From an uncultured Pelagibacteraceae bacterium (GTDB lineage: Bacteria > Pseudomonadota > Alphaproteobacteria > Pelagibacterales > Pelagibacteraceae), in NCBI GenBank assembly GCA_902517615.1, contig CABYCY010000006.1, positions 20,567 to 84,566 on the forward strand: a stretch of 64,000 nucleotides of DNA, read 5' to 3'. Each line of letters begins with the position of its first letter. The stretch's first letter is position 1. The notes beneath the pieces are model-generated. The model made no database searches. It was not told where the DNA came from and worked only from the letters and a program-made list of their open reading frames with translations. Positions 15,449-37,365 of the stretch are shown here, one piece after another. The position numbers and the translations under genes are program-made.

Positions 15449-16127
15449 AAGAATTTTTATTGCATGCGATACTTCAGATCATAAAAAAGCGAAAAATATA
15501 ATTTCTAAAATTAAAACTAACAAACTTAAAATCATACCAAAATTTGGTTTACAATTTTTTTATTCTAAAAATGGAAGAAAATTTTTAGAAAATTTCAAAA
15601 ACGATTTTTGGTTAGATTTAAAAATTAATGATATTCCACAAACTGCAATTTCAGCAATCAATAGTTTAAAAGATTTAAAAAAATGCAGATTTATAACTGT
15701 TCATGCAAATGGTGGTCTCGATATGCTTAAGGCCATTAAGAAAGAAACAAAAAAAATTAACAAAAATTTAAAAGTGTTAGTAGTGACTGTATTGACAAGT
15801 TTAAATAATAACTCTCTAAAAGAAATTGGTTATAACAAAAAAGTTAAACAAATAGTTTTAAAACAAGCTGATCTGATAAAAAAATCAGGTTGTGATGGAA
15901 TAGTTTGCTCTGCGCAAGAAGCTAAGATAGTTAGAAAAAAATATAAAAACTTATTTATTGTTACTCCTGGAATAAGATTACCTGGCGATAGTTCAAATGA
16001 TCAATCAAGGGTAATGTCTCCTAATGATGCTTTTAAAAATAATGTTTCAGGAATTGTAATGGGTAGATCTCTAATTAAAGGAAATATAAAAAAAAATATT
16101 CAAAAATTAATCGATCATTTAAATTAA
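15438..16127 (+). CDS. pyrF: Orotidine 5'-phosphate decarboxylase
   Basis: Converts OMP to UMP. The 229-residue TIM-barrel protein has the catalytic DLKINDIPQT (usual DLKFHDIPNT, with the D-K-x-x-D residues kept), VTVLTS, VCSAQEA and the phosphate-binding TPGIR and GRSLIK segments. It overlaps ihfB by 11 bp and trpF by 1 bp, so it is part of a tightly coupled ihfB-pyrF-trpF-trpB-trpA chain. No unusual missing residues were noted except the H-to-N change. Confidence 0.94.
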   Translation: MKNKRIFIACDTSDHKKAKNIISKIKTNKLKIIPKFGLQFFYSKNGRKFLENFKNDFWLDLKINDIPQTAISAINSLKDLKKCRFITVHANGGLDMLKAIKKETKKINKNLKVLVVTVLTSLNNNSLKEIGYNKKVKQIVLKQADLIKKSGCDGIVCSAQEAKIVRKKYKNLFIVTPGIRLPGDSSNDQSRVMSPNDAFKNNVSGIVMGRSLIKGNIKKNIQKLIDHLN

Positions 16128-16750
16128 TGATTAAGGGTGTAAAAATTTGTGGAGTATCAGATTCTAAAACATTAAATTTTATCTTAAACCATACTTATCC
16201 ACCAAACTTTATTGGATTTATTTGTAATTATCCAAAAAGCTCAAGATATATTGAGTTTGATAAATTAAAAAAATTAACAAATGTAAATAAAAATAAAAGT
16301 TTGTTTGTTGCAGTATTGGTAAAACCTGATCATAATATTTTAGAAAAAATTAAAGATCTTCCATTTGATTATTATCAAATATATGACTGCACACCTAAAG
16401 AAATAAAAAAAATTAAACAAAAGTATAATAAAAAAATTATTCCAGTTCTTACAATATCTAATCAAAATGATATCAATAAATATAAAGATTTCGAAAAAAT
16501 TGCAGATATTCTTTTATTTGATAGCAAAGGTTATGAGCAGTCGGAATCTTTTAATCATGAATATTTAAATAATGTTAATTCCTTAAAACCAATTATGATT
16601 GCTGGTGATATTAAAACTAGTGATTTAGATAATTATAAGAATAAACCTTTTTTAATAGATGTCAGTGGCAATTTAGAGTCTGAAAAAGGCGTTAAAAATA
16701 TAAATAAAATTGATAAGTTTTTAAATACAGTCCATAATATAAATTCTTAA
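16127..16750 (+). CDS. trpF: Phosphoribosylanthranilate isomerase, divergent
   Basis: Third step of the tryptophan branch after anthranilate. The 207-residue protein keeps the catalytic cysteine in VKICGVSD (about residue 8) and the acid in LLFDSKG, but other conserved segments are changed: QIYDC for QLHG, IAGDIKTSDL for LAGGLxxxNV, and DVSGNLESEKGVKN for DVSSGVExxPGxKD. Placement directly before trpB-trpA supports the assignment. It overlaps pyrF by one base. Activity on PRA is likely but not certain, given the number of altered motifs. Confidence 0.85.
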   Translation: MIKGVKICGVSDSKTLNFILNHTYPPNFIGFICNYPKSSRYIEFDKLKKLTNVNKNKSLFVAVLVKPDHNILEKIKDLPFDYYQIYDCTPKEIKKIKQKYNKKIIPVLTISNQNDINKYKDFEKIADILLFDSKGYEQSESFNHEYLNNVNSLKPIMIAGDIKTSDLDNYKNKPFLIDVSGNLESEKGVKNINKIDKFLNTVHNINS

Positions 16751-16759
16751 AAATTATCT

Positions 16760-17953
16760 ATGACAAAAAATTCGTTAAAAACAGGTCCAGATGAGTTAGG
16801 TTATTACGGCGAAGGTGATGATGCCATGGGTGGAATGGCAGTTGGTGAAACGCTTATGCCAGCACTTCATGAATTAGGCAAAGGTTTTGAAGAAGCTATT
16901 AAGGATAAAGAATTTTTGGAAGAATATGCTTATTATTGTAAACACTATATTGGAAGACCCTCTCCACTGTATTATGCAGAAAATCTAACAAAAAAATTAG
17001 GTGGTGCAAAAATTTTATTCAAACAAGAACATCTTAATCATACTGGTTCTCATAAAATCAACAATAGTTTGTTTCAAGTTTTACTTGCAAAAAGAATGGG
17101 TAAAACTCATTTAATTTGTGAATCTGGAGCTGGACAACATTATAGTGCGACTGCTGCGGTTGCTGCAAAATTCAATATACCTTTAATAGGTGTTATGGGT
17201 GATGTTGATGTAAAAAGAGTTAATCAAAATATCATTAAAGCAAAACATTATGGTGCAAAATTAGAAACAGTTCCAGGTACTCTTAAAGAAGCTATCACAT
17301 CAGCAATTAAAATTTGGTCTAGCAATCCAGAATATGCTTACATATGTGGATCTGCGGTGTCATCGGCACCCTTTCCTAAAATAGTTGCATTTGCTCAAAG
17401 TATTATAGGAAAAGAAATAAGAGAACAATCAATGGAACAAGAAGGAAAAATTCCAGATATGATTGTAGGATGTGTTGGAGGCGGTTCAAATTTTGCCGGA
17501 GCTATTTATGAATTCTTAGATGAGCCTAATGTAAAGAAAATTGGAGTTGAGGCAGCAGAAACTGCTGCATTATCAAATGGTACACCTGGAATTATGCAGG
17601 GTATGAAAACTTATATGTTACAAACTGATGATGGTGCTAAATCTTTAGGAGGAATGAGTTTAGGTGCTGGAATAACTTATTTTTCAGTCGGACCTATGCA
17701 CTCATACTTAAAAGATCAAAAAGCTGTTAGCTATTCATCTGCTACCGATAAAGAAATGCTTTATGCTTATAAAATAATTGCCCAAACAGAGGGTATTTGT
17801 TCAGCTTTAGAACCTATGGCAGGTGCTGCTGAAATTATTTTTAGACAAGCAAAAGATAAGCCTAGAGACTACATTATTTGTCTTTCACTATGCGGCAGAG
17901 GTGAAAAAGATTTGGATACCATCCAAGAACATATGGGTAAAGATTTTGAGTGA
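16760..17953 (+). CDS. trpB: Tryptophan synthase beta chain
   Basis: PLP enzyme that joins indole and serine. The 397-residue protein is highly conserved: HLNHTGSHKINN with PLP Lys99, GAGQHYSATAAVAA, the phosphate-binding GCVGGGSNF, and EPMAGAAE near the C-terminus. The N-terminal YYGEGDDAMGGMAVGETL segment is typical of the TrpB1 form that pairs with TrpA. It is followed by trpA, whose likely start lies inside its last codons. Confidence 0.97.
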   Translation: MTKNSLKTGPDELGYYGEGDDAMGGMAVGETLMPALHELGKGFEEAIKDKEFLEEYAYYCKHYIGRPSPLYYAENLTKKLGGAKILFKQEHLNHTGSHKINNSLFQVLLAKRMGKTHLICESGAGQHYSATAAVAAKFNIPLIGVMGDVDVKRVNQNIIKAKHYGAKLETVPGTLKEAITSAIKIWSSNPEYAYICGSAVSSAPFPKIVAFAQSIIGKEIREQSMEQEGKIPDMIVGCVGGGSNFAGAIYEFLDEPNVKKIGVEAAETAALSNGTPGIMQGMKTYMLQTDDGAKSLGGMSLGAGITYFSVGPMHSYLKDQKAVSYSSATDKEMLYAYKIIAQTEGICSALEPMAGAAEIIFRQAKDKPRDYIICLSLCGRGEKDLDTIQEHMGKDFE

Positions 17954-18749
17954 AAGATTAGATATAATTTTTAAGTCTCCTACTCCTAAAACAAAATTAG
18001 TTTCTTATTTTGTAGGTTGTTACCCTACTCCCGAAATAAGTTTAGAGTTGATCAAGCAAGCAATTGATAATGGGGTGTCTATATTGGAAATTGGATACTG
18101 TACATCTGAAGCTTCTGCCGAAGGACCTATAATTAAAGCTGCACATGACCATGTGTTAAATAATGGTCATAATCTTAATGATATTATTAAACTAGTTAAC
18201 GATATAAGAGAATACAACCAAGATGTAGGCATTGTATTAATGGGTTATATAGCAAATTTATACAAATACCCTATTTCAAACTTTGTAGACGATATTAAAA
18301 TTGCTGGTGCTGATGCAGTTTTGGTTGTGGATGCTCCTCATGAGTTAAAAGAGGAAAATCAATTAAGAGAAGCTTTAAATAAAAATGGATTATCACTTAT
18401 TAAATTAGCTGCACCTACTACTGATGATAATAGGCTTAAAGATATTGTTAATATAGCTTCTGGATTTTTGTACCAAGTCAATGTTTCGGGTGTGACTGGG
18501 GATAAATCTGCAAATGAAACTGATGTTGCAAATTTTGTAAAAAGAATCAGGAATATAACTCAAATCCCAATTTGCTCTGGATTTGGAATTAAGATTCCTG
18601 AAGATGCAAAAAAAATGGCTAACAGTGGTTGTAATGGAGTTATTGTAGGATCAGCATTTGTAAAATATATTCAAGATAATATTGAGAACAAAGATTTACC
18701 ACAAAGTTTAGGTAATCTAATAAAAAATTTTACAGAAGAATTAAAATAA
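17946..18749 (+). CDS. trpA: Tryptophan synthase alpha chain, Glu at the catalytic Asp site
   Basis: Cleaves indole-3-glycerol phosphate to indole. The start is taken as TTG at 17946 (MSERLDIIFK), overlapping the trpB stop by 8 bp; this gives 267 residues, the family length. Family features include KLAAPTTDDNRLKDI, YQVNVSGVTG and the phosphate site SGFGIKIPEDAK. The active-site segment reads LEIGYCTSEASAEGP, where the usual form is LELGVPFSDPLADGP: the first catalytic Glu is kept, but the site of catalytic Asp60 is Glu and several neighbours differ. The protein is otherwise intact. Confidence 0.92.
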   Translation: MSERLDIIFKSPTPKTKLVSYFVGCYPTPEISLELIKQAIDNGVSILEIGYCTSEASAEGPIIKAAHDHVLNNGHNLNDIIKLVNDIREYNQDVGIVLMGYIANLYKYPISNFVDDIKIAGADAVLVVDAPHELKEENQLREALNKNGLSLIKLAAPTTDDNRLKDIVNIASGFLYQVNVSGVTGDKSANETDVANFVKRIRNITQIPICSGFGIKIPEDAKKMANSGCNGVIVGSAFVKYIQDNIENKDLPQSLGNLIKNFTEELK

Positions 18750-19683: not shown

Positions 19684-20905
19684 AGAAATAGATCTTAGTT
19701 TAGATCGTATTAAAAATATCTGTAAAAGATTAGGAAATCCTCAAGATAAATTAAAAGTAATAACAGTTGTTGGTACAAATGGTAAGTATTCAACAATCCA
19801 GGCAATATTTGCTATTTTAAAAGAAGCAAATATCAAATGTAATATCTACACAAGCCCTCATATTAAAATTATCAATGAAAGATTTGTTTATAATAACCAA
19901 GAACTCTGCGATAATGAATTAGCAAGTTTATTTGAAGATATTGAAAATGCTAACAATAATGAACCAATTACTTTTTTTGAAATACTCACAGCAGCTTATT
20001 TTCTAAAAGCTTCTCAATATCCAAATAATATTAATTTGGTAGAAACTGGATTATTTCATAGGTTTGATGCTACTAATATTTTAAAAAATAATCTAGCTAG
20101 TATAATAACTTCTATTGGTGTTGATCATTTAGATTGGCTACCAAAAAATAAACAGACTGTAGAAAATATTATATTTGAAAAAACATCCTCACTTTTAAAT
20201 TCTAATATTATTGTTGCAAAACAAAGTAATAAAGAAATTACAGACTGTATTAAAAAAACAATTTCAAATAATGGTTCAAACAAAATTTTTCATAATGAAA
20301 ATTATAGTTTTACAATTAAAGAAAATGATTTCTTTTATTATGAAGATCAATTTGGTGGAATAAAATTACCAATGCCAAATGTAAAAGGTCAATTTCAATT
20401 AGAAAATATTTCAACAGCTATTGCAACTCTAAGGATCATAAAAGATCATGAAATTAAAGATAAACACATTCAAAAAGGAATTACAAAAATAAATAGTATT
20501 GCAAGATTACAAGAAATTAAATCAGGTAAACTTAAAGAACTTGTAAAATACAATCAGCTTTTAGTTGATGGGTCTCATAATCCTTTAGGTGCAAAAGTGT
20601 TAAATGAATATTTAGAAAGTTTAAATTGTAATAAACATATCATTCTTGGTATGATGGCTAATAAAGATCATAATGAATATATGAGTTACTTTAGGAATGT
20701 TTCGTCCTTGACTACTATTGATATACCTAATCAACCTAATTCAATTAAAGGAAAAGAACTTAAAAATAAAATAAATAGATTTAAAAATATTAACTATAAA
20801 GCAGGTATAGAAGAAGCTATCAGCTCAATTCCAGTCGAAGAGAATGATATAATACTAATTACAGGATCTCTATATCTTGCTGGAGAAGTATTGAATTTAA
20901 ATTAA
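19637..20905 (+). CDS. folC: Dihydrofolate/folylpolyglutamate synthase
   Basis: Mur-ligase-type enzyme adding glutamate to folates. The N-terminus LQRLHPKEIDLSLDRIKN matches the family start, which is why the ATG at 19637, 47 bp inside accD, is accepted. The ATP loop reads GTNGKYST (46-53) where the family has GTNGKGST; Tyr51 replaces a P-loop glycine. Also visible are TSPHIKIINERF, IITSIGVDHLDWL and VDGSHNPLGAKVL. The 422-residue length is normal. It ends in a 4-bp convergent overlap with trxA. Confidence 0.93.
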   Translation: MKLQKILNRLQRLHPKEIDLSLDRIKNICKRLGNPQDKLKVITVVGTNGKYSTIQAIFAILKEANIKCNIYTSPHIKIINERFVYNNQELCDNELASLFEDIENANNNEPITFFEILTAAYFLKASQYPNNINLVETGLFHRFDATNILKNNLASIITSIGVDHLDWLPKNKQTVENIIFEKTSSLLNSNIIVAKQSNKEITDCIKKTISNNGSNKIFHNENYSFTIKENDFFYYEDQFGGIKLPMPNVKGQFQLENISTAIATLRIIKDHEIKDKHIQKGITKINSIARLQEIKSGKLKELVKYNQLLVDGSHNPLGAKVLNEYLESLNCNKHIILGMMANKDHNEYMSYFRNVSSLTTIDIPNQPNSIKGKELKNKINRFKNINYKAGIEEAISSIPVEENDIILITGSLYLAGEVLNLN

Positions 20906-21219
20906 ATATTTTTATCTAAAAATTCTTTCATATGGCTTTCTGGAACTCCACCAACTTTTCTATCTACTTCAACACCTTTTTTGTAAATAATAACTGTTGG
21001 TACCCCTCTAATTCCTGCAGCACTTCCGGTGTTAATTCCACCATCTTCAACGTCAGCATAATAAAAGCCCGCTTTATCCTTATACTCATCAGATAATTTA
21101 TCTAATATTGGCTTTAAGGCTTTGCATGGTCCGCACCAAGCTGCTGAAAACTGGATCACAGATACCTCTTCATTTTTGATTTTATTGTCAAAATCTTCAT
21201 CTTTAAAATCTATAAGCAT
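20902..21219 (-). CDS. trxA: Thioredoxin
   Basis: Disulfide reductase of about 105 residues with the active site AAWCGPCKA (C29, C32), the cis-proline segment GIRGVPTVIIYKKG and the final helix. Standard thioredoxin fold and length. It is separated by 66 bp from sbcB upstream and overlaps folC convergently by 4 bp, so no separate terminator is possible between the two. Confidence 0.95.
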   Translation of the reverse strand: MLIDFKDEDFDNKIKNEEVSVIQFSAAWCGPCKALKPILDKLSDEYKDKAGFYYADVEDGGINTGSAAGIRGVPTVIIYKKGVEVDRKVGGVPESHMKEFLDKNI

Positions 21220-21285: not shown

Positions 21286-22731
21286 CTAAGCATCTGAATA
21301 TTTTTGTTCCAGATTCATTACATAATCGTTAATACCATCTAAAAATTTAAGCTTTTCGTCTACAGTTTTGAAAGAAAACATTTTATCTTCATTTTCTCTA
21401 ATTTCATCACACTCAGAATAAAAAGCAGACACTGTCCACCATTTTTCTTTGTTTGTACTTAATATTCTTGAGGCAATTCTTCTCTTAATTTTTTTATAAA
21501 TATCTTTTGGCAAAATTTCTGGGGCCTCATTAAATATTAAACCATGACCAAAGGTAACTAATCTATCGTCCTGAAATTGATCCAATATTGCTAACTTTTC
21601 TTTCCAGTCTGAACTGTGAAATTTAGGAAACAAGGCTTCATCTTTAGGAGGTATAAAACCGCCTGAATAAATAGACTCTTCAGGCTCAATATCTTCTTGT
21701 GATGCTGTCTCCATTTTTTCTTCTGCAGCTTCTCTTAAAATATTACAAATATCTAGCGAAAACTTCTCATTAGTTTTCATTAGTTCGGCTCTTTTATTTA
21801 GTAAATTCTCACCAATTTTTTTATATGGGTCTACCTTCACTCCTAAACTTTTATCTAAAATAATAGGAGCTTTATTGGATTTTATAGTTTTATAAAAACG
21901 AGGTGACCTTTTCATTTCTTTTTTTAAATCTTGATAATTAAGTTTTTGAAGCTCTTCTATATTTGCTGATAAATTAACAACCTGTCCCCATTTATAAACA
22001 GGATGCATCCATGAATTAGGATGAAGTGGTGCAACTAAAAATAAATAATTTTTACCAAAAAAATTTTCATTAATTGTGAACATTTTTTCTTGTTTGATTA
22101 AATTTTCTACAACCACTTTACTTTTAGTTTTTAAATACTCATTCCATAAATTAGGTTGTTTATCTTTTAACAATCCTAAAACTTTTACAGTCAATTCGGT
22201 ATCGAATAATGCAGAGTGAGCATCTTTAGAGTCAAAACCATTCAGCCTGGCTAAAGATTCAAGTTTCATTGACTTATTACCTTTTGGATTAAGTTCAGTT
22301 TTTAATACATTCTCATCAATCGCAAATGCTGCTTTAATCATATTAAGAGCATCATGCCTTGAGTTGCCTTCTGTATTAATTAAATATGGTTTTCTTAATG
22401 ATTTAAAAAACTCTCGCCTTAGAATTTCATCGTCGAATCCAACCGAGCTATATCCCATAAATGTTGCTGGAGACCAATCTCTAAATTTTTTCTCAAGTTG
22501 AGCAATCATCTCATAATGACTCATGTTGCCCTTGGTAATCAAATCTACATTTGACTTATTAATACATAAAGCTGTAGCCGAAGGAACTCTATCTTGTGGC
22601 ATTCTACATCTTGCTGAAAATCTCTCCTTTTCCTTAAAATTTTCATCAAGCAGAATTGCTCCAACTTCTATCATTGTTGCCCAATCTAATTGAGCTGAGT
22701 CTGTCTCAATATCCCATATTACGAAATTCAA
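21286..22731 (-). CDS. sbcB: Exodeoxyribonuclease I
   Basis: 3'-5' single-strand DNA exonuclease used in recombination and repair. The 481-residue protein has the DEDDh exonuclease domain (about 1-185): WDIETDSAQLDW (DxE), GYSSVGFDDEILRREFF, and AHSALFDTELTVKVLGLL with the HxAxxD motif. The C-terminal region (about 200-480) corresponds to the SH3-like and helical exonuclease I domains, with FGHGLIFNEAPE. The start is TTG at 22731, overlapping the stop of the upstream nuclease gene (TTGA), so the pair is translationally coupled. Confidence 0.92.
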   Translation of the reverse strand: MNFVIWDIETDSAQLDWATMIEVGAILLDENFKEKERFSARCRMPQDRVPSATALCINKSNVDLITKGNMSHYEMIAQLEKKFRDWSPATFMGYSSVGFDDEILRREFFKSLRKPYLINTEGNSRHDALNMIKAAFAIDENVLKTELNPKGNKSMKLESLARLNGFDSKDAHSALFDTELTVKVLGLLKDKQPNLWNEYLKTKSKVVVENLIKQEKMFTINENFFGKNYLFLVAPLHPNSWMHPVYKWGQVVNLSANIEELQKLNYQDLKKEMKRSPRFYKTIKSNKAPIILDKSLGVKVDPYKKIGENLLNKRAELMKTNEKFSLDICNILREAAEEKMETASQEDIEPEESIYSGGFIPPKDEALFPKFHSSDWKEKLAILDQFQDDRLVTFGHGLIFNEAPEILPKDIYKKIKRRIASRILSTNKEKWWTVSAFYSECDEIRENEDKMFSFKTVDEKLKFLDGINDYVMNLEQKYSDA

Positions 22732-23414
22732 TTTACTAACCTTTCTAAATAAAATTGTTCTACTTTTTCCATAAATTGGTTTTGATAATTTTTAAATCGC
22801 TCACCACCAATTATAAACCTTTGAAATATATTATCTTTAGTACATAAAAGAATTACACCTTGATTAATATTAGTTCCATAAACTGTGTTGTGTGCCATTG
22901 CATAAGCTGCGCATTGTAAATAATAATTATCTATCCACTCATCTTTTTTAGGCTTATTAGCATTCTTAAAATCTATTAAACTTTCTTTATTTTCATAAAT
23001 GCCAATACAATCTGCTGATCCAGCATATTTTCCTGGATAATATAAAGTCGCTTCACACCCCCATATTTCATCAAGCTTATTTCTAAGACCACTTTCAATA
23101 ATTTGATCTGCCATCATTTTTTCTCGAGTATTATCTCCAAGTAATTCTAAATTTAATTTTCCTAGTAAAAACTTCTCCAAATAATCATGCATAGAACTTC
23201 CTCGACTTGTAGCCTCTCTAGAAATTATCTCTGCTTGTTTATAACCTACCCTTTGCTTCCAAGCTTCAAGTTTTGCCTTTTTTTCCTCAGACTCAGTAGC
23301 CTTTAGGATTGTTGTTACAGATGGTAAATTTTCTTGATTTACAGAATAATGCCTTGATCCGTGAATAATTGATCTTGTTGATTTTGGATAAATATATTTA
23401 TTATTCCACTGCAT
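22728..23414 (-). CDS. PD-(D/E)XK nuclease resembling mitochondrial MGME1
   Basis: Predicted DNA exonuclease of 228 residues. PSVTTIL (31-37), the KLEAWKQR segment (48-55), a conserved His76 in GSSMHDYLE, Asp135 in GSADCIGIY, the IDFK motif (D148, K150) followed by NANKPK, and QCAAYAMAH (167-175) match, from memory, the order and spacing of human MGME1 (PSVTTIL, LERWKQR, LLDC, IDWKTSEKPK, VAYMGAM). MGME1 trims single-stranded ends and flaps of mitochondrial DNA. Phage exonucleases share this fold, so a viral origin is possible. The gene overlaps sbcB by 4 bp and follows rmuC after 37 bp, which suggests a DNA-end processing unit. Function is inferred. Confidence 0.72.
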   Translation of the reverse strand: MQWNNKYIYPKSTRSIIHGSRHYSVNQENLPSVTTILKATESEEKKAKLEAWKQRVGYKQAEIISREATSRGSSMHDYLEKFLLGKLNLELLGDNTREKMMADQIIESGLRNKLDEIWGCEATLYYPGKYAGSADCIGIYENKESLIDFKNANKPKKDEWIDNYYLQCAAYAMAHNTVYGTNINQGVILLCTKDNIFQRFIIGGERFKNYQNQFMEKVEQFYLERLVN

Positions 23415-23451: not shown

Positions 23452-24549
23452 TTAATTTTTAGCTTGCTTTGAATGATCTACAAATTTTTCTACATTTTCT
23501 GTTTGGACAGCTTTTTCAAGTTGTTCTGGGTCTTTAATACTTTCAAGAGTTCTGGTAATTGATCTAGCGTCTGTTCCAAACTTATCAACAACAGACATAG
23601 CTTCTTCTAATTTTTTTCTAAGAGAAATTATATTGTCAAAGTGTTTTCCAAATCTTGAGCTTATTGTTTTTAAATGATTATAAATTTCAGTTGCACCTTT
23701 TTGAACTTTTAGTGATTGAAATCCCATATGAAGAGATTGCAAGTAAGCTGAAAGAGTATTTGGACCACAGATTACAACCTTATATTTTTTCATTATTTCT
23801 TGAGTTAACAACTCTTTAGTGCTTGGATCTTGGAATTCAGTTAATTCTTTATATAAACTCTCAGTTGGTGCATAAACAATTGCAAAATCTGTAGTTTTTG
23901 GTGGAACAATATATTTTTCATTAACACTTTTTGCTTTAGCTTTAAAAGCAATGGCTAATTTTGCTCTAGCATCTGCAATAGCTCTTTTATCATCCGCGTC
24001 ATGACCATCTGTAATTGCTTTAAATTTTTCTACTGGAAAATGACTATCAACCGGAACTAAAACATCTCCTTGAAGCTTAATTGCAAATTCAACATTCTCA
24101 CTTGTATCTTCCTTCATCTTAACGTTAGTCATAAATTGAGAGGCAGGTAATAAATCTTTGATTAAAGCGTCCAAGCTAAATTCAGCAAGGGTTCCATACT
24201 TTTTGACACCTGCTAAAATTTTAGTAATTCCCTCTTGGCTTTGATTTAATAATTGAACTTGTTGGTTAAAATTACCAACTTTTTCATCTACTTTGGTTAG
24301 GGCCTCTGTCATATCTTTAGTAACTCCAGTTGATAGATTGTTAAATGAAGTCGACATTGCACCAAGTGAAGTATTAATTGTACTATTTAGGGTAATCTTT
24401 AAACTTGAAATCTCAGATTTTAAATTAGCTATCTCTTCTGCTTCTCTATTTTCATTTTTATCTTTAGTTTTAGACTTCACATTTAAATATAGAATTGCCA
24501 AAACACCCAGCAGCAGCAAAACAAGTAAAATTATCGATAAACTATCCAT
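23452..24549 (-). CDS. rmuC: DNA recombination protein RmuC
   Basis: RmuC limits inversions at short inverted repeats and has a predicted restriction-endonuclease-like core. The 365-residue protein has an N-terminal membrane helix (about 4-23), a coiled coil (about 30-110), then the conserved core with DVLVPVDSHFPVEKF and PPKTTDFAIVYAPTESLY, and a further coiled coil (about 295-350). It lies upstream of the MGME1-like gene and sbcB and downstream of hisG on the same strand. Confidence 0.92.
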   Translation of the reverse strand: MDSLSIILLVLLLLGVLAILYLNVKSKTKDKNENREAEEIANLKSEISSLKITLNSTINTSLGAMSTSFNNLSTGVTKDMTEALTKVDEKVGNFNQQVQLLNQSQEGITKILAGVKKYGTLAEFSLDALIKDLLPASQFMTNVKMKEDTSENVEFAIKLQGDVLVPVDSHFPVEKFKAITDGHDADDKRAIADARAKLAIAFKAKAKSVNEKYIVPPKTTDFAIVYAPTESLYKELTEFQDPSTKELLTQEIMKKYKVVICGPNTLSAYLQSLHMGFQSLKVQKGATEIYNHLKTISSRFGKHFDNIISLRKKLEEAMSVVDKFGTDARSITRTLESIKDPEQLEKAVQTENVEKFVDHSKQAKN

Positions 24550-24592: not shown

Positions 24593-25285
24593 TTAATTCT
24601 TAGAAAGTAATCTGGTTATTTTTTTAATACCATCTTTGTTATTTGATGATTTTGAAATCATCATACATGCCTCAGACTTTAATATTTCACCATCCTTTAA
24701 AATACGCAAATTGTTAGCTTTCAGTGTTTCGCCCGTGGAAGTAATGTCAGTAATAATTTCTGAAGACCCTGTGAATGGATAGGCCTCAGTTGCTCCCAAA
24801 CTGTCCACTAAATTAAATTGAGTAACACCTTTTGAAAATAAAAATTCTCTAGTTAAATTTGGGTATTTTGTTGCTACTCTTAATCTTTTCGTTTTTTTAT
24901 CCTTAAACTCAAATGCTATTTCCTCTAAATCTGCAACTGTTTGAACATCTATCCATGGATCTGGAATTGCAACTACTAATGTTGCTTTGCCGAAATTATA
25001 TTTTGTTAAAACATTGATTTTCTTTTGAATATTGATTTCACTTTCTTTTAATAAATCAAATCCAGAAAAACCTAAATCTAAAGATCCATCTCCAAGTCTT
25101 TCTATAATTTCTCTAGCATGAAGATATAAAATTTTTATATTTTTATATTGTTTTATTGATCCAAGTAGATCTCTTTCTCCTCTCTCGGAAACAAGATTTA
25201 ATTTATTTTTTTTGAATATTTTTAAAACATCTTTTCTAAGTCTACCTTTACTGGGAATTCCAATATTTAAAATATTTTTTGTCAT
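24593..25285 (-). CDS. hisG: ATP phosphoribosyltransferase, short form
   Basis: First enzyme of histidine synthesis. The 230-residue length marks the short HisG that lacks the regulatory ACT-like domain and needs HisZ. The conserved region around LGFSGFDLL and the PRPP-binding segment DITSTGETLKANNLRIL are visible. The ATG shares one base with the hisZ stop (TAATG), and hisS-hisZ-hisG run together. This matches the known dependence of short HisG on HisZ. Confidence 0.95.
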   Translation of the reverse strand: MTKNILNIGIPSKGRLRKDVLKIFKKNKLNLVSERGERDLLGSIKQYKNIKILYLHAREIIERLGDGSLDLGFSGFDLLKESEINIQKKINVLTKYNFGKATLVVAIPDPWIDVQTVADLEEIAFEFKDKKTKRLRVATKYPNLTREFLFSKGVTQFNLVDSLGATEAYPFTGSSEIITDITSTGETLKANNLRILKDGEILKSEACMMISKSSNNKDGIKKITRLLSKN

Positions 25286-30301: not shown

Positions 30302-31560
30302 TATTTTAATCTTTTAATTTTAATTCCAATTTTTTTTAACTTATTTTCTATCTTTTCATAGCCTCTATCTAAATGATAGATTCTATTAATTACAGATTTA
30401 CCATTTGAAACTATTGCAGCTAAAACTAATGCAACTGAGGCTCTTAAATCACTCGACATTAATTCTGCTGCCACAAAATTTGTATTTCCATGAATAATAG
30501 CCTTATTTTTATTTATATTTATTGATGCTCCAAGTCTTTGAAGTTCTGCAACATGCATAAAACGATTTTCAAAAATACTTTCAGTAATTAAAGTTTTGCC
30601 ATTAGCTTTACACATTAAAACCATTAATTGTGCTTGAAGATCGGTTGGGATACCCGGATATTCCTTAGTTTTAATACTTTTAAGGGATTTAATCTTTTCC
30701 GGACCTTTAATTGTAATTTTATTTTTATTAGTTTTAATATTAGCTCCAGCTTTTTTTAATAAATTTAACTCTTTCTGAATAACATTAGGATTTAAATTAT
30801 TTATTTCTAAGTTACCCTTAGATAAAGTTGCAGCTACACAAAAAGTACCTGCCTCAATTCTATCTGGCATTACAGAGTATTCTGTTTGATTTAAAGAATT
30901 AACACCTTTAATTTTACAAGTTCTTCCTTTCCATTTTATTTTTGCACCTGATAAATTTAAAAAATTGGTAAGGTCTTTTATTTCTGGTTCAATTGCACAA
31001 TTTTTTAAAATAGTTTTTCCTTTTGCCAAACATGCTGCGATAATTGAATTTTCAGTTGCGCCAACACTTAATTTTGGAAATGTTATAGAAGCACCCTTAA
31101 GTTTACCTTTTGATTTCGCTATAATGTAACCGTCTTTTATTTCGTAATTCATACCAAGTTTTTTTAATGCTGCTAAATGATAATCTACTGGACGAGCACC
31201 TATTAAACATCCCCCAGGAAGTGAAGTCATTGATTTATGAAATTTTGCAATTAAAGGGCCCAATACTAAAATAGATCCTCTCATAGTCTTTACTAGAGAA
31301 TAGCTTGCAAAGGTTTTCATATTTTTTTTATTTAAAATTCTTGCTGTCTTTTTATCCTTAGATATTTCAATCTTTGATCCAAGAGATTTTAGTAAATTAA
31401 GCATTGTATTTATATCTTTTACTCTTGGTAAATTTTTTATAATAACTGGCTTATCAAATAATAGTGTTGAAGCTAAAATTGGAAGAGATGCATTTTTAGA
31501 CCCAGAAATTGAAACTTTACCCTTGATTCTACAAGGACCATCAATAATAAATTTATCCAT
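30301..31560 (-). CDS. murA: UDP-N-acetylglucosamine 1-carboxyvinyltransferase
   Basis: First committed step of peptidoglycan synthesis. The 419-residue protein shows GSKNASLPILA (about 20-30), the active-site cysteine in LPGGCLIGARPVDYH (the usual GCAIGxRPVDLH), and TEYPGIPTDLQAQLM near residue 300 (as TKEYPGIPTDLQ). Intact cysteine suggests fosfomycin-sensitive chemistry of the standard type. It starts 3 bp after the dcd stop, continuing a translationally coupled minus-strand run. Confidence 0.97.
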   Translation of the reverse strand: MDKFIIDGPCRIKGKVSISGSKNASLPILASTLLFDKPVIIKNLPRVKDINTMLNLLKSLGSKIEISKDKKTARILNKKNMKTFASYSLVKTMRGSILVLGPLIAKFHKSMTSLPGGCLIGARPVDYHLAALKKLGMNYEIKDGYIIAKSKGKLKGASITFPKLSVGATENSIIAACLAKGKTILKNCAIEPEIKDLTNFLNLSGAKIKWKGRTCKIKGVNSLNQTEYSVMPDRIEAGTFCVAATLSKGNLEINNLNPNVIQKELNLLKKAGANIKTNKNKITIKGPEKIKSLKSIKTKEYPGIPTDLQAQLMVLMCKANGKTLITESIFENRFMHVAELQRLGASININKNKAIIHGNTNFVAAELMSSDLRASVALVLAAIVSNGKSVINRIYHLDRGYEKIENKLKKIGIKIKRLK

Positions 31561-31563
31561 GGA

Positions 31564-32124
31564 TTACTTTTTTATTTTAGCAACTTGAATAGTCGTTTGT
31601 CCTTGATATTTTCCTTTCTTGGACTTGTAAGTGGTTTCTGGCTCAGTATCAGATTTAAAAAATAAAAATTGTGCAATTCCTTCATTGGAATATATTTTTG
31701 CAGGGTTTGGTGTTGTATTGCTAAGTTCAATTACTATATTTCCTTCGAACTCATTTTCTATAGGAGTAACATTACAAATAATACCTGTTCTGGCATAAGT
31801 ACTTTTTCCAACACATATACATAGAACGTCTTTAGGAATTCTAAAATATTCAATTGTTTTACCTAAAACGAATGAATTGGGAGGAATAATACAATGTGGA
31901 CCCTTCCTCTCAATAAAATTATCATCAGAAAAGTTTTTAGGGTCTACTAAAGAATTATTTACATTAGTAAAAATTCTATATTCATCAGAAATTCTAACAT
32001 CATATCCCATACTACTTAATCCAAAAGATATTTTTCCCTCAGAGACCTGATGATCTAAAAATGGCTCAATCATGTTGTTTTCTTTGCACATTTTTTTTAT
32101 CCATGAGTCAGGTTGAATAGACAT
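31564..32124 (-). CDS. dcd: dCTP deaminase
   Basis: Deaminates dCTP to dUTP for thymidylate synthesis. The 186-residue trimeric dUTPase-fold protein has [21 protein letters not shown] (conserved S-x-A-R and catalytic Glu segment, about 102-122) and IAQFLFF, plus the C-terminal KKGKYQGQ that closes over the nucleotide. Its ATG shares one base with the stop of the 33-codon gene upstream. Confidence 0.95.
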
Positions 32125-35848: not shown

Positions 35849-36697
35849 ATGGATCTAGAAAAAATATTACCTGAAGATGGACCACCAATAAATGAAGTAA
35901 CTAAATATATTGAAAAATACGAAAATGATTTAATAGTAATTAAATATGGTGGAAACGTTTTAATTGATAGAAACGTATTTAATAACTTTATAACTGATCT
36001 TAGTATTTTAAATAAATTAGGCCTTGCAACTGTTGTAATTCATGGTGGTGGACCTAGAATTAAAAGAGAGCTAGAAAAATCAAATATTCAATCAAAATTT
36101 ATAAGAGGACTAAGAGTTACTGATAAAAATATTATTAGTATTGTTGAGTCTGTTCTTATTGATTTTAATGATGACATTGTTAATTCCTTAAAAGACAAAG
36201 GAATAGAAGCAATCTCTATTCATACAAAAAATAATAATGTTATAAAAACTATTCCAGAAGCAGAAGAGCTAGGATTTGTGGGAATACCAAATGAGATAAA
36301 TAATGAACAAATATTAAATGTAATTAATCAAAATAAAATTCCTATAATTTCACCACTAGGATTAGATAAAGAAAACCAAACATATAATATTAATGGAGAT
36401 ACAGCTGCAATGGCTATAGCAAAATCTTTAAAATCTAGAAGACTACTGTTAATGACCAATGTTGATGGTGTTTTAGATAAAAATAAAAAATTAGTAGAAG
36501 AAATTTCTTCATCTGAAATTTTGGAGATGATTAAAGATGAAACTATTACAGAGGGTATGATACCTAAAATAAATGCTTGCTTAGATGCAGTGAACAATGG
36601 TGTTACAGCAGTTGGGATAATCAATGGCACAAAGCCACATTCATGTTTATGGGAAATATTTTCTGATAAAGGTTCTGGGACTTTAATAAGACAATGA
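35849..36697 (+). CDS. argB: Acetylglutamate kinase
   Basis: Second step of arginine synthesis. The 282-residue amino-acid-kinase-fold protein shows IKYGGNVLID (ATP-binding lysine), VIHGGGPRIKREL, the ornithine/arginine region YNINGDTAAMAIAKSL and LMTNVDGVLD. It overlaps the HAD phosphatase gene by 4 bp (ATGA). An N-terminal extension of about 25 residues, as in arginine-inhibited hexameric forms, is present, so feedback inhibition is plausible but not shown. Confidence 0.96.
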   Translation: MDLEKILPEDGPPINEVTKYIEKYENDLIVIKYGGNVLIDRNVFNNFITDLSILNKLGLATVVIHGGGPRIKRELEKSNIQSKFIRGLRVTDKNIISIVESVLIDFNDDIVNSLKDKGIEAISIHTKNNNVIKTIPEAEELGFVGIPNEINNEQILNVINQNKIPIISPLGLDKENQTYNINGDTAAMAIAKSLKSRRLLLMTNVDGVLDKNKKLVEEISSSEILEMIKDETITEGMIPKINACLDAVNNGVTAVGIINGTKPHSCLWEIFSDKGSGTLIRQ

Positions 36698-37365
36698 AAG
36701 AATTAAAGAATATTAAGAATATATTGTTCGATTGCGATGGGGTGCTCTACAGTGATCTCGAAGGAGTATTTGGTCAAGTAAGTATAAAAATGACTCAATA
36801 TATTTCAAATAAATTAAATGTAGATTTAAAAGAAGCAAAAGAATTACAAACAAATTATTTTCATAAATATAACACTAGTCTTAATGGTTTAATGATACAT
36901 CATGATATACCTCCAAGAGAATTTCTAGACTACGTGCATGACATCAATTTAGATTTTTTAAAGAAAGATACTGTTTTAAGGAATGAGTTAGAAAATATTA
37001 ATCTAAAAAAATTTGTGTTTACAAATGGTAGCAAAGAACATGTTAAAAATATTACTACTCATTTAGGAATTGATGGTCAATTTGATGGTGTATTTGATAT
37101 TGTTGATGCAGAATACAGTCCAAAACCTGAGGCAAAGGCATTTGATCTTATGGTCAAAAAATTTCAAATCGATCCAACTGAGTCACTATACATTGAAGAT
37201 ATTGCAAAAAACTTATCAATTGGAAAAGAAAGAGGAGCAAAAACAGTTTGGTTAATCAATGATGAATACTGGGGGAAAAAAGAGTCTGATAAAGAATATA
37301 TTGATTACAAAATAGAAAATCTTTCTTTATTTTTAAAAGAAATAAGGTTATTAAAAAACTCATAA
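36694..37365 (+). CDS. HAD hydrolase, pyrimidine 5'-nucleotidase type
   Basis: Haloacid dehalogenase-like phosphatase of 223 residues related to the SDT1/PHM8 pyrimidine nucleotidase group. The motif I aspartates are in LFDCDGVLY (11-19), the cap region includes LQTNYFHKYNTSLNGLM, motif II FVFTNGS, motif III lysine in YSPKPEAKAFD and motif IV YIEDIAKNL. It overlaps argB by 4 bp and precedes dapD by 4 bp. Substrate is inferred from the cap sequence. Confidence 0.85.
   Translation: MKELKNIKNILFDCDGVLYSDLEGVFGQVSIKMTQYISNKLNVDLKEAKELQTNYFHKYNTSLNGLMIHHDIPPREFLDYVHDINLDFLKKDTVLRNELENINLKKFVFTNGSKEHVKNITTHLGIDGQFDGVFDIVDAEYSPKPEAKAFDLMVKKFQIDPTESLYIEDIAKNLSIGKERGAKTVWLINDEYWGKKESDKEYIDYKIENLSLFLKEIRLLKNS

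What the first reader, a model, noticed from the sequence alone, without database searches (positions are those of the whole stretch)
22728..23414. MGME1-like nuclease coupled to exonuclease I and next to rmuC
The 228-residue protein shares with human MGME1, in order, a PSVTTIL segment, an EAWKQR segment, a conserved His, Asp135, an IDFK motif (D148, K150) with NANKPK, and a QCAAYAMAH helix. MGME1 is a mitochondrial nuclease for single-stranded ends and flaps. Here the gene overlaps sbcB by 4 bp (TTGA), and rmuC lies 37 bp upstream on the same strand, suggesting a compact DNA-end processing unit. The comparison with MGME1 is from memory. Phage exonucleases share the fold.
Basis: partly seen in the sequence, partly recalled or inferred. 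Interest (0 to 1): 0.75.

Follow-up and report, generated by a model that had tools for sequence, protein, structure and literature searches.

The report
Phage-type MGME1-like nuclease paired with ExoI
A common ocean bacterium carries a probable DNA-end-trimming enzyme of the same family as a human mitochondrial repair nuclease and many phage enzymes, and it is inherited and swapped between strains together with a second DNA-end nuclease, exonuclease I.

Summary
In detail: the 228-residue ORF, its motifs, the TTGA overlap with sbcB and the 37-bp gap to rmuC are present. Among solved structures human MGME1 is closest by far (only PDB sequence hit, E 1e-12; predicted fold Z 22, next RecE 13.6), and its catalytic residues are invariant in 129 host and 81 viral-set rows. 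But the family is a phage family: best profile phrog_298 (5e-52), which human MGME1 also matches (1e-22). In the class sample only 2 of 289 genomes have it, the window's own and one of its genus, so common descent with mitochondria through Alphaproteobacteria is not supported. The link to sbcB is real as shared history (partial Mantel 0.86-0.87, like hisG-hisZ); rmuC follows the flanks. The pair is exchanged as divergent alleles between conserved flanks, though other nearby genes are exchanged too and sbcB shares some history with trx. In five loci restriction, Pbe or DISARM genes lie beside it, without a measured background. Most likely this is a phage-type single-strand-end exonuclease domesticated in SAR11 and working with ExoI; activity, direction of transfer and any defence role are untested or unproven.

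The parts
22728..23414 (-). MGME1-like / phrog_298 PD-(D/E)XK exonuclease gene, 228 aa
   Evidence: AlphaFold2 model mean pLDDT 93.6; Z 22.1 to human MGME1
23187..23189 (-). codon of H76 (= MGME1 His180, motif Ia)
   Evidence: phmmer residue mapping and invariance
23259..23261 (-). codon of W52 (= MGME1 Trp152, one half of the unwinding pin)
   Evidence: invariant in 129 host and 81 viral-set rows
23052..23054 (-). codon of E121 (= MGME1 Glu223, motif I)
23010..23012 (-). codon of D135 (= MGME1 Asp238)
22965..22973 (-). codons of D148-F149-K150 (= MGME1 Asp251-Trp252-Lys253)
22902..22916 (-). codons of Q167 to Y171 (motif IV QhXXY)
22728..22731 (-). TTGA overlap: TGA stop of the nuclease gene and TTG start of sbcB
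21286..22731 (-). sbcB, exonuclease I family (RNase_T + Exonuc_X-T_C), second gene of the pair
   Evidence: history correlated with the nuclease gene
23452..24549 (-). rmuC, upstream neighbour; in this genus its history goes with the flanks
20902..21219 (-). thioredoxin-like gene 'trx' (named here from its WCGPCK sequence, no family search), flank downstream of sbcB
24593..25285 (-). hisG (name recalled from sequence, no family search), flank upstream of rmuC

Best explanation
The gene encodes a metal-dependent PD-(D/E)XK exonuclease of the phage family phrog_298, the family to which human MGME1 also belongs. Shown: predicted fold, catalytic residues, family, near-confinement to Pelagibacteraceae in the class sample, and shared history with sbcB. 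Inferred: a Pelagibacter ancestor took it from a marine phage and placed it next to sbcB, where both are read from one message. Inferred: like MGME1 it threads free single-stranded DNA ends (5' and 3' tails, flaps) and chops them into short pieces, while ExoI works on 3' ends, so the pair clears or trims DNA ends of both polarities in a cell in which no AddAB/RecBCD-type PDDEXK_1 nuclease was found.
For: Only PDB sequence hits are MGME1. Model pLDDT 93.6; Z 22.1, rmsd 2.2 over 189 residues to MGME1, next RecE Z 13.6; Foldseek E 1e-12 to 1e-10 for nine MGME1 chains, next 1e-4. T34, W52, H76, E121, D135, D148, K150, Q167 and Y171 are identical in all 129 host rows and all 81 rows of the viral set, the window row counted in each and some genomes present twice among the hosts. 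phrog_298 5.3e-52 for this protein and 1.1e-22 for the MGME1 fragment, next family 2.6e-4. Distribution: 108 of 117 genus-g1 genomes by my count of the rows; 3 of 84 in other genera of the family; 2 of 289 in the class, the window's own genome and one of its genus. Empty site: rmuC directly beside sbcB with the same downstream genes in L035, L036, L046. History: partial Mantel nuclease-sbcB 0.86 (0 of 1000 permutations) and 0.87 (0 of 2000), against 0.08 for nuclease-rmuC; hisG-hisZ 0.85. PDDEXK_1 not found in the own genome while 12 of 14 control genomes have it. MGME1 chemistry and end-threading arch: PMC6237815 and PMC9460513, passages.
Against: No activity is measured. Direction of transfer is not settled: the tree draws the host rows inside marine viral rows, but the AU test does not reject viral monophyly (p 0.37), and the host cluster itself has support 49. 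sbcB exists without this nuclease: in 41 of 41 family genomes that pass the quality filter, of which 14 have the nuclease. Adjacent genes may be exchanged together without working together; other genes within 20 kb also show replaced alleles. The pair is not wholly free of flank history: partial correlations with trx are 0.44-0.51 for sbcB and 0.22 for the nuclease, 0 permutations as high, and in the larger, less complete set both correlate with hisG at 0.47-0.52. MGME1 Gln145 and Thr254 map to K45 and N151, and Phe173 of the pin did not align; the nearest column is S/T in hosts. RecJ is present, so another 5' single-strand exonuclease exists. Human MGME1 is also reported to cut duplex DNA (PMC6237815 passage). 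The own genome is 91% complete, so the missing PDDEXK_1 may be a gap.
Confidence: 0.58

Rival explanations
1. Defence reading: the nuclease-ExoI pair (sometimes with an RmuC-family protein) is mainly an anti-phage module that degrades incoming or replicating phage DNA ends; its divergent alleles are kept and swapped because phages carry inhibitors.
For: In G190 the pair adjoins genes matching DrmA (2e-183), DrmB (4.5e-80) and an AspBHI/Mrr-type restriction enzyme; in G078 PbeA (4e-133) and a weak PbeC match lie beyond two small genes; in G124 a C5-methyltransferase, a DUF4420 protein and a helicase adjoin it; in G170 and G183 a C5-methyltransferase lies between it and hisG. Of 17 neighbour proteins that I picked for PADLOC, 10 had a match of any strength and 7 none. 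Three cassette types occur on one flank type. An RmuC domain acts in the Shield anti-phage system (PMC10270631, passages). The PADLOC model RTasSbcB matches this SbcB at 3.6e-70.
Against: I picked the neighbours because they looked inserted, and no background rate of defence neighbours was measured. The window and many loci have the plain order hisG-rmuC-nuclease-sbcB-trx. The nuclease has only weak Cas4 matches in PADLOC, and the SbcB match may reflect ExoI homology only; no reverse transcriptase was looked for. Presence in 108 of 117 genus genomes is, in my judgement, unlike most defence systems.
Confidence: 0.18
2. Hitch-hiking reading: an ordinary phage-derived housekeeping nuclease that happens to stand beside sbcB; the two share history only because neighbouring genes recombine together.
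For: Other neighbouring genes in the region are also exchanged; an adjacent control pair reaches 0.85 (hisG-hisZ); the genes are apart in L017 and on opposite strands in L016, L091, L101 and L107.
Against: Equally adjacent nuclease-rmuC shows 0.08. The two genes stay near each other in G190, where none of the seven other flank genes is found in the 11.7 kb fetched, and in G078 and G124, where about 1.1 kb with another gene lies between them.
Confidence: 0.2
3. Mitochondrial-heritage reading: the SAR11 gene and MGME1 descend from one gene of the alphaproteobacterial ancestor of mitochondria.
For: MGME1 is the closest solved structure.
Against: 2 of 289 class genomes have it, the window's own and one of its genus; pelagiphages and the kept viral contigs are at 41-56% identity while MGME1 is at 22-25%; phrog_298 covers cyanophage, jumbo-phage and Ackermannviridae members.
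Confidence: 0.03

Closest known systems
Human MGME1 (mitochondrial genome maintenance exonuclease 1)
   Same: Fold (Z 22.1), the metal-binding and catalytic residues, motif Ia His, motif IV, pin Trp152
   Different: 22-25% identity; Gln145 and Thr254 differ and Phe173 has no aligned counterpart; bacterial, next to sbcB; activity unknown
phrog_298 phage exonucleases (HTVC027P gp27, 121Q gp29, Syn19_220, PhaxI gp078)
   Same: Same profile family, up to 46% identity to phages in general, same 14 invariant residues in 23 aligned rows
   Different: In several phages they stand near terminase small subunit, UvsY or helicase genes; none of 80 viral loci holds sbcB within the fetched flanks
Exonuclease I (SbcB)
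   Same: The partner gene has RNase_T and Exonuc_X-T_C domains above cut-off
   Different: Below the cut-off of the NCBIfam equivalog (136 of 260 bits)
Cas4 / AddB-type PDDEXK_1 nucleases
   Same: Same superfamily; a PDDEXK_1 nuclease stands directly before sbcB in L039, L044 and, on the other strand, L045
   Different: This protein is below both curated cut-offs
Shield (ShdA, RmuC domain)
   Same: RmuC-family neighbour
   Different: No Shield gene was tested for; comparison from passages of PMC10270631 only

Membership tests
MGME1 family | PD-(D/E)XK catalytic set E223, D238, D251, K253 | tested here: met
   E121, D135, D148, K150
MGME1 family | Motif Ia His180 and motif IV QhXXY of RecB-type nucleases | tested here: met
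   H76; Q167-C-A-A-Y171
MGME1 family | Overall fold closer to MGME1 than to other PD-(D/E)XK nucleases | tested here: met
   Z 22.1 against 13.6 (RecE) and 12.8 (3l0a) for a predicted model
MGME1 family | Two-residue unwinding pin, Trp152 and Phe173 (described for the human enzyme) | tested here: inconclusive
   W52 matches Trp152; Phe173 falls in an unaligned stretch, nearest host column S/T, viral column mostly A
MGME1 family | One-to-one descent with eukaryotic MGME1 | tested here: inconclusive
   Human row has an end branch of 4.29 and no stable place; no other eukaryotic row was used
MGME1 family | Cleavage of free single-stranded ends and flaps, not circles | not testable with these tools
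   needs purified protein
phrog_298 phage exonuclease family | Best profile match, nearly full length | tested here: met
   5.3e-52, residues 7-225 of 228; next 1.6e-6
Cas4 | NCBIfam TIGR00372 cut-off | tested here: not met
   20.3 of 65 bits
PDDEXK_1 (AddB-type) | Pfam PF12705 gathering score | tested here: not met
   16 of 22 bits
Exonuclease I (partner sbcB) | RNase_T and ExoI C-terminal domains | tested here: met
Exonuclease I (partner sbcB) | NCBIfam equivalog NF008746 cut-off | tested here: not met
   136.2 of 260 bits, residues 2-475 of 481. It is filed as an ExoI-family protein, not as the equivalog
Known anti-phage system | A PADLOC system containing this nuclease | tested here: inconclusive
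   Only weak Cas4 matches, 1.8e-5 at best

The most novel reading that the evidence does not exclude
One phage exonuclease family was domesticated twice. Once in eukaryotes, where it became MGME1, adding a member to the phage-derived mitochondrial DNA replication kit (Twinkle, T7-type polymerases; recalled). Once in SAR11, where it was joined to exonuclease I in a two-gene cassette whose divergent alleles are swapped between strains and which in some strains sits among defence genes, acting as the cell's answer to phage DNA ends.
Probability: 0.22. Interest if true: 0.8.

Novelty: new variant of a known kind. Interest (0 to 1): 0.55.

Why it matters
If right, the human mtDNA-maintenance enzyme MGME1 belongs to a phage exonuclease family found in T4-like, jumbo and marine phages, which gives it a plausible phage origin and gives bench workers bacterial and phage relatives to compare. 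It also gives SAR11, one of the commonest ocean bacteria, in a genome where no AddAB-type nuclease was found, a candidate two-polarity DNA-end processing pair. In the listings and passages that my literature searches returned I saw no paper that states either point; the held library lacks most subscription journals and I read no paper whole.

Tried and rejected
Mitochondrial heritage through Alphaproteobacteria: rejected as the main reading. The phylum sample of 398 genomes gave, besides the window's own, one weak partial match inside a 1181-aa frame, which I did not identify.

RmuC as part of the unit in this genus: tested and not supported by history. In 8 of 11 other genera looked at (g2, g3, g4, g5, g7, g9, g10, g12) an RmuC-family gene stands directly before sbcB in at least one genome; in g6, g13 and g14 a PDDEXK_1 nuclease does.

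sbcB as a dependent partner: rejected, because sbcB occurs in 86 of 99 family genomes and the nuclease in 17 of 99.

Uniqueness of allele replacement: rejected. Within about 20 kb, sbcB (median 43%) and the nuclease (57%) are third and fifth most divergent of 42 genes against the six genomes with other cassette types (median of all genes 84%); the trp genes, murA, dcd, argB and others show replacements too.

Relocation: I first took the pair in G078 and G124 to lie elsewhere in the genome. On checking, both lie on the side of trx and folC with about 4 and 8 kb of extra genes between; only G190 shows no flank gene in the stretch fetched. The odds of the defence, hitch-hiking, best and novel readings were moved slightly for that.

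A host-inside-phage rooting: drawn by the tree, not proven (AU p 0.37).

Plasmids: 2 weak hits in cyanobacterial plasmids. I used no eukaryote other than the human sequence in the PDB.

Full report
What is there. The window lies in a 1.32-Mb genome, 91% complete. Loci of its relatives carry titles of Pelagibacteraceae (SAR11); that genus g1 is Pelagibacter is my inference from those titles. On the minus strand run hisG, rmuC (23452-24549), a 228-aa ORF (22728-23414), sbcB (21286-22731, TTG start) and a thioredoxin-like gene. Flank names (hisG, hisZ, hisS, trx, folC, accD) are recalled from their sequences and were not tested by family search. The TTGA overlap with sbcB and the 37-bp gap to rmuC are correct.

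What the protein is. Against all PDB chains, the only sequence hits are human MGME1, E 1.3e-12 to 1.2e-11. An AlphaFold2 model from 19 genus and family members has mean pLDDT 93.6. Foldseek ranks nine MGME1 chains first (1e-12 to 1e-10), then drops to 1e-4. VIA-align gives Z 22.1 (rmsd 2.2, 189 residues) for MGME1, 13.6 for RecE, 12.8 for 3l0a. By phmmer mapping, MGME1 Thr134, Trp152, His180, Glu184, Glu223, Asp238, Asp251, Lys253 and motif IV Gln/Tyr fall on T34, W52, H76, E80, E121, D135, D148, K150, Q167 and Y171. All of these but E80 are identical in 129 of 129 host rows and 81 of 81 rows of the viral set; E80 is kept in 128 and 79. The window row is in both sets, and some genomes are in the host set twice, under two locus names. 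Gln145, Trp252, Thr254 and Phe266 map to K45, F149, N151 and I161, and Phe173, the second half of the unwinding pin, falls in an unaligned stretch. Roles of the MGME1 residues are from passages of PMC6237815.

Which family. Pfam PDDEXK_1 (16 of 22 bits) and NCBIfam Cas4 (20 of 65 bits) stay below cut-off. PHROGs gives phrog_298 'exonuclease' at 5.3e-52. The human MGME1 fragment scanned in the same way also has phrog_298 first, at 1.1e-22, with the next family at 2.6e-4. So MGME1 and this protein fall in one profile family, built from phage proteins. In annotated phages 867 records match, among them pelagiphage HTVC027P (45%), jumbo phages (about 41%), cyanophages (about 30%) and Ackermannviridae (29%). 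None of these 80 holds a recognisable host flanking gene or sbcB in the stretch fetched. In 67 of 80 a gene cluster recurs whose representative matches terminase small subunit (phrog_51, 5.4e-19; its best match is an unnamed family), which supports their being phages.

Where it occurs. Genus g1: 108 of 117 genomes by my count of the rows. Family sample: 14 of 15 in g1 and 3 of 84 in other genera. Class: 2 of 289, the window's own and one of its genus. Phylum: 2 of 398, the window's own and one weak partial match. Of the nine g1 genomes without it: G216 breaks off inside sbcB at the end of a contig; G122 has a divergent rmuC-sbcB without it; G074 and G244 have a distant sbcB (29-30%) without it near by, and in G176 the stretch fetched held neither; in G154, G174, G226 and G227 no folC match was found and the locus was not seen. 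In L035, L036 and L046, other genera, rmuC stands directly beside sbcB with trx, folC and accD after it: the same site without the gene. In L039, L044 and L045 a different nuclease, PDDEXK_1, stands directly before sbcB, in L045 on the other strand. So the place before sbcB holds different nucleases in different genera, or none.

Link to sbcB. Among 51 loci with both genes, 48 have them on one strand; 40 of these are within 200 bases in the window's order, 6 with the 4-bp overlap. In 29 loci with all nine neighbourhood genes, pairwise identities of the nuclease and sbcB correlate (Spearman 0.70), and after removing the flanks 0.86 with 0 of 1000 permutations as high; nuclease-rmuC gives 0.08 (249 of 1000). 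With adjacent pairs as controls: nuclease-sbcB 0.87, hisG-hisZ 0.85, the six others 0.07 to 0.52. HisG and HisZ form one enzyme (recalled), so the linkage of the pair is as tight as that of those subunits. After removing near-copies (18 loci) Spearman is 0.66 against 0.05 for nuclease-rmuC. Of 100 locus pairs with flanks at least 85% identical, 49 have cassettes below 65% and 51 at least 75%; one flank type carries three cassette types. Against a clean reading: sbcB-trx keeps a partial correlation of 0.44-0.51 and nuclease-trx 0.22; in the larger, less complete set both genes correlate with hisG at 0.47-0.52; and other genes near by are also replaced. Exchange is common here and adjacency may explain part of the link.

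Expanded loci and defence neighbours. In G078 and G124 extra genes (about 4 and 8 kb) lie between sbcB and trx, and the nuclease is followed by other genes instead of rmuC-hisG; in G190 no flank gene is found in the 11.7 kb fetched. In G078 an RmuC-family gene stands between nuclease and sbcB (Pfam); the similar gene in G124 was recognised by resemblance only. Neighbours match PbeA and weakly PbeC (G078); a C5-methyltransferase, DUF4420 and a helicase (G124); DrmA, DrmB and an AspBHI/Mrr-type enzyme (G190). In G170 and G183 a C5-methyltransferase sits between hisG and the pair. L066 has an AAA/OLD-like gene upstream of rmuC. Of 17 neighbour proteins scanned in PADLOC, 10 had a match of any strength and 7 none. 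I chose them because they looked like inserts and have no background rate, so this is a lead and not a test.

How it most likely works. Shown: predicted fold, active site, family, linkage. Inferred from MGME1 (threading arch and no digestion of single-stranded circles, PMC9460513 passage; preference for single strands in both directions and flap processing, PMC4222359 passage; duplex cutting also reported, PMC6237815 passage): the protein cuts free single-stranded ends. ExoI works 3' to 5' (PMC12483538 passage). RecJ is present (below its curated cut-off but over 542 of 546 positions), so this enzyme is not the only candidate 5' single-strand exonuclease. PDDEXK_1 is not found in the own genome while 12 of 14 control genomes have it.

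Tree. Host rows form one cluster (support 49; 95 with one viral row added) among marine viral rows; the human row is a very long branch without a reliable place. Viral monophyly is not rejected (p 0.37). Phage-to-host transfer is therefore likely from distribution but not proven by the tree.

Verdict. The MGME1 comparison holds and gains a frame: MGME1 and this gene fall in one phage exonuclease family. The ExoI coupling holds as linkage; rmuC is a conserved neighbour. Descent of MGME1 and this gene from a common alphaproteobacterial ancestor is not supported.

Noticed in passing
window 16127-18749: trpF-trpB-trpA of this genome are far from those of ten other genus members (about 58%, 33% and 28% identity; median of 42 genes in the region about 84% in the comparison), a likely foreign trp segment; the trpA reads EIGYCTSEASAEGP where the usual catalytic motif (recalled) has an Asp before GP.
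   Followed up: partly
window 30304-32124 and 35849-37362: murA-dcd and argB-HAD phosphatase genes are at low identity (54-66%) to some of ten genus members and high (77-96%) to others, as if whole gene pairs are exchanged between strains.
   Followed up: no
L098, L099, L101, L104, L106, L091: A divergent SAR11 group has a distant sbcB (27-31%) directly preceded by a 380-494 aa protein; of three such proteins scanned two had no Pfam family and one a Peptidase_S24 match.
   Followed up: partly
L032, L033, L037, L048: Two small unknown proteins (one of the 'NRxNAxxSxGPxT..GK' type) recur upstream of rmuC-sbcB in several genera and beside the nuclease gene in G078; the L033 pair has no Pfam match.
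   Followed up: no
L202, L203: In phages PhaxI and PhiW-14 an exonuclease related to this one stands directly after a UvsY-like recombination mediator, hinting at a role in recombination-dependent replication.
   Followed up: no
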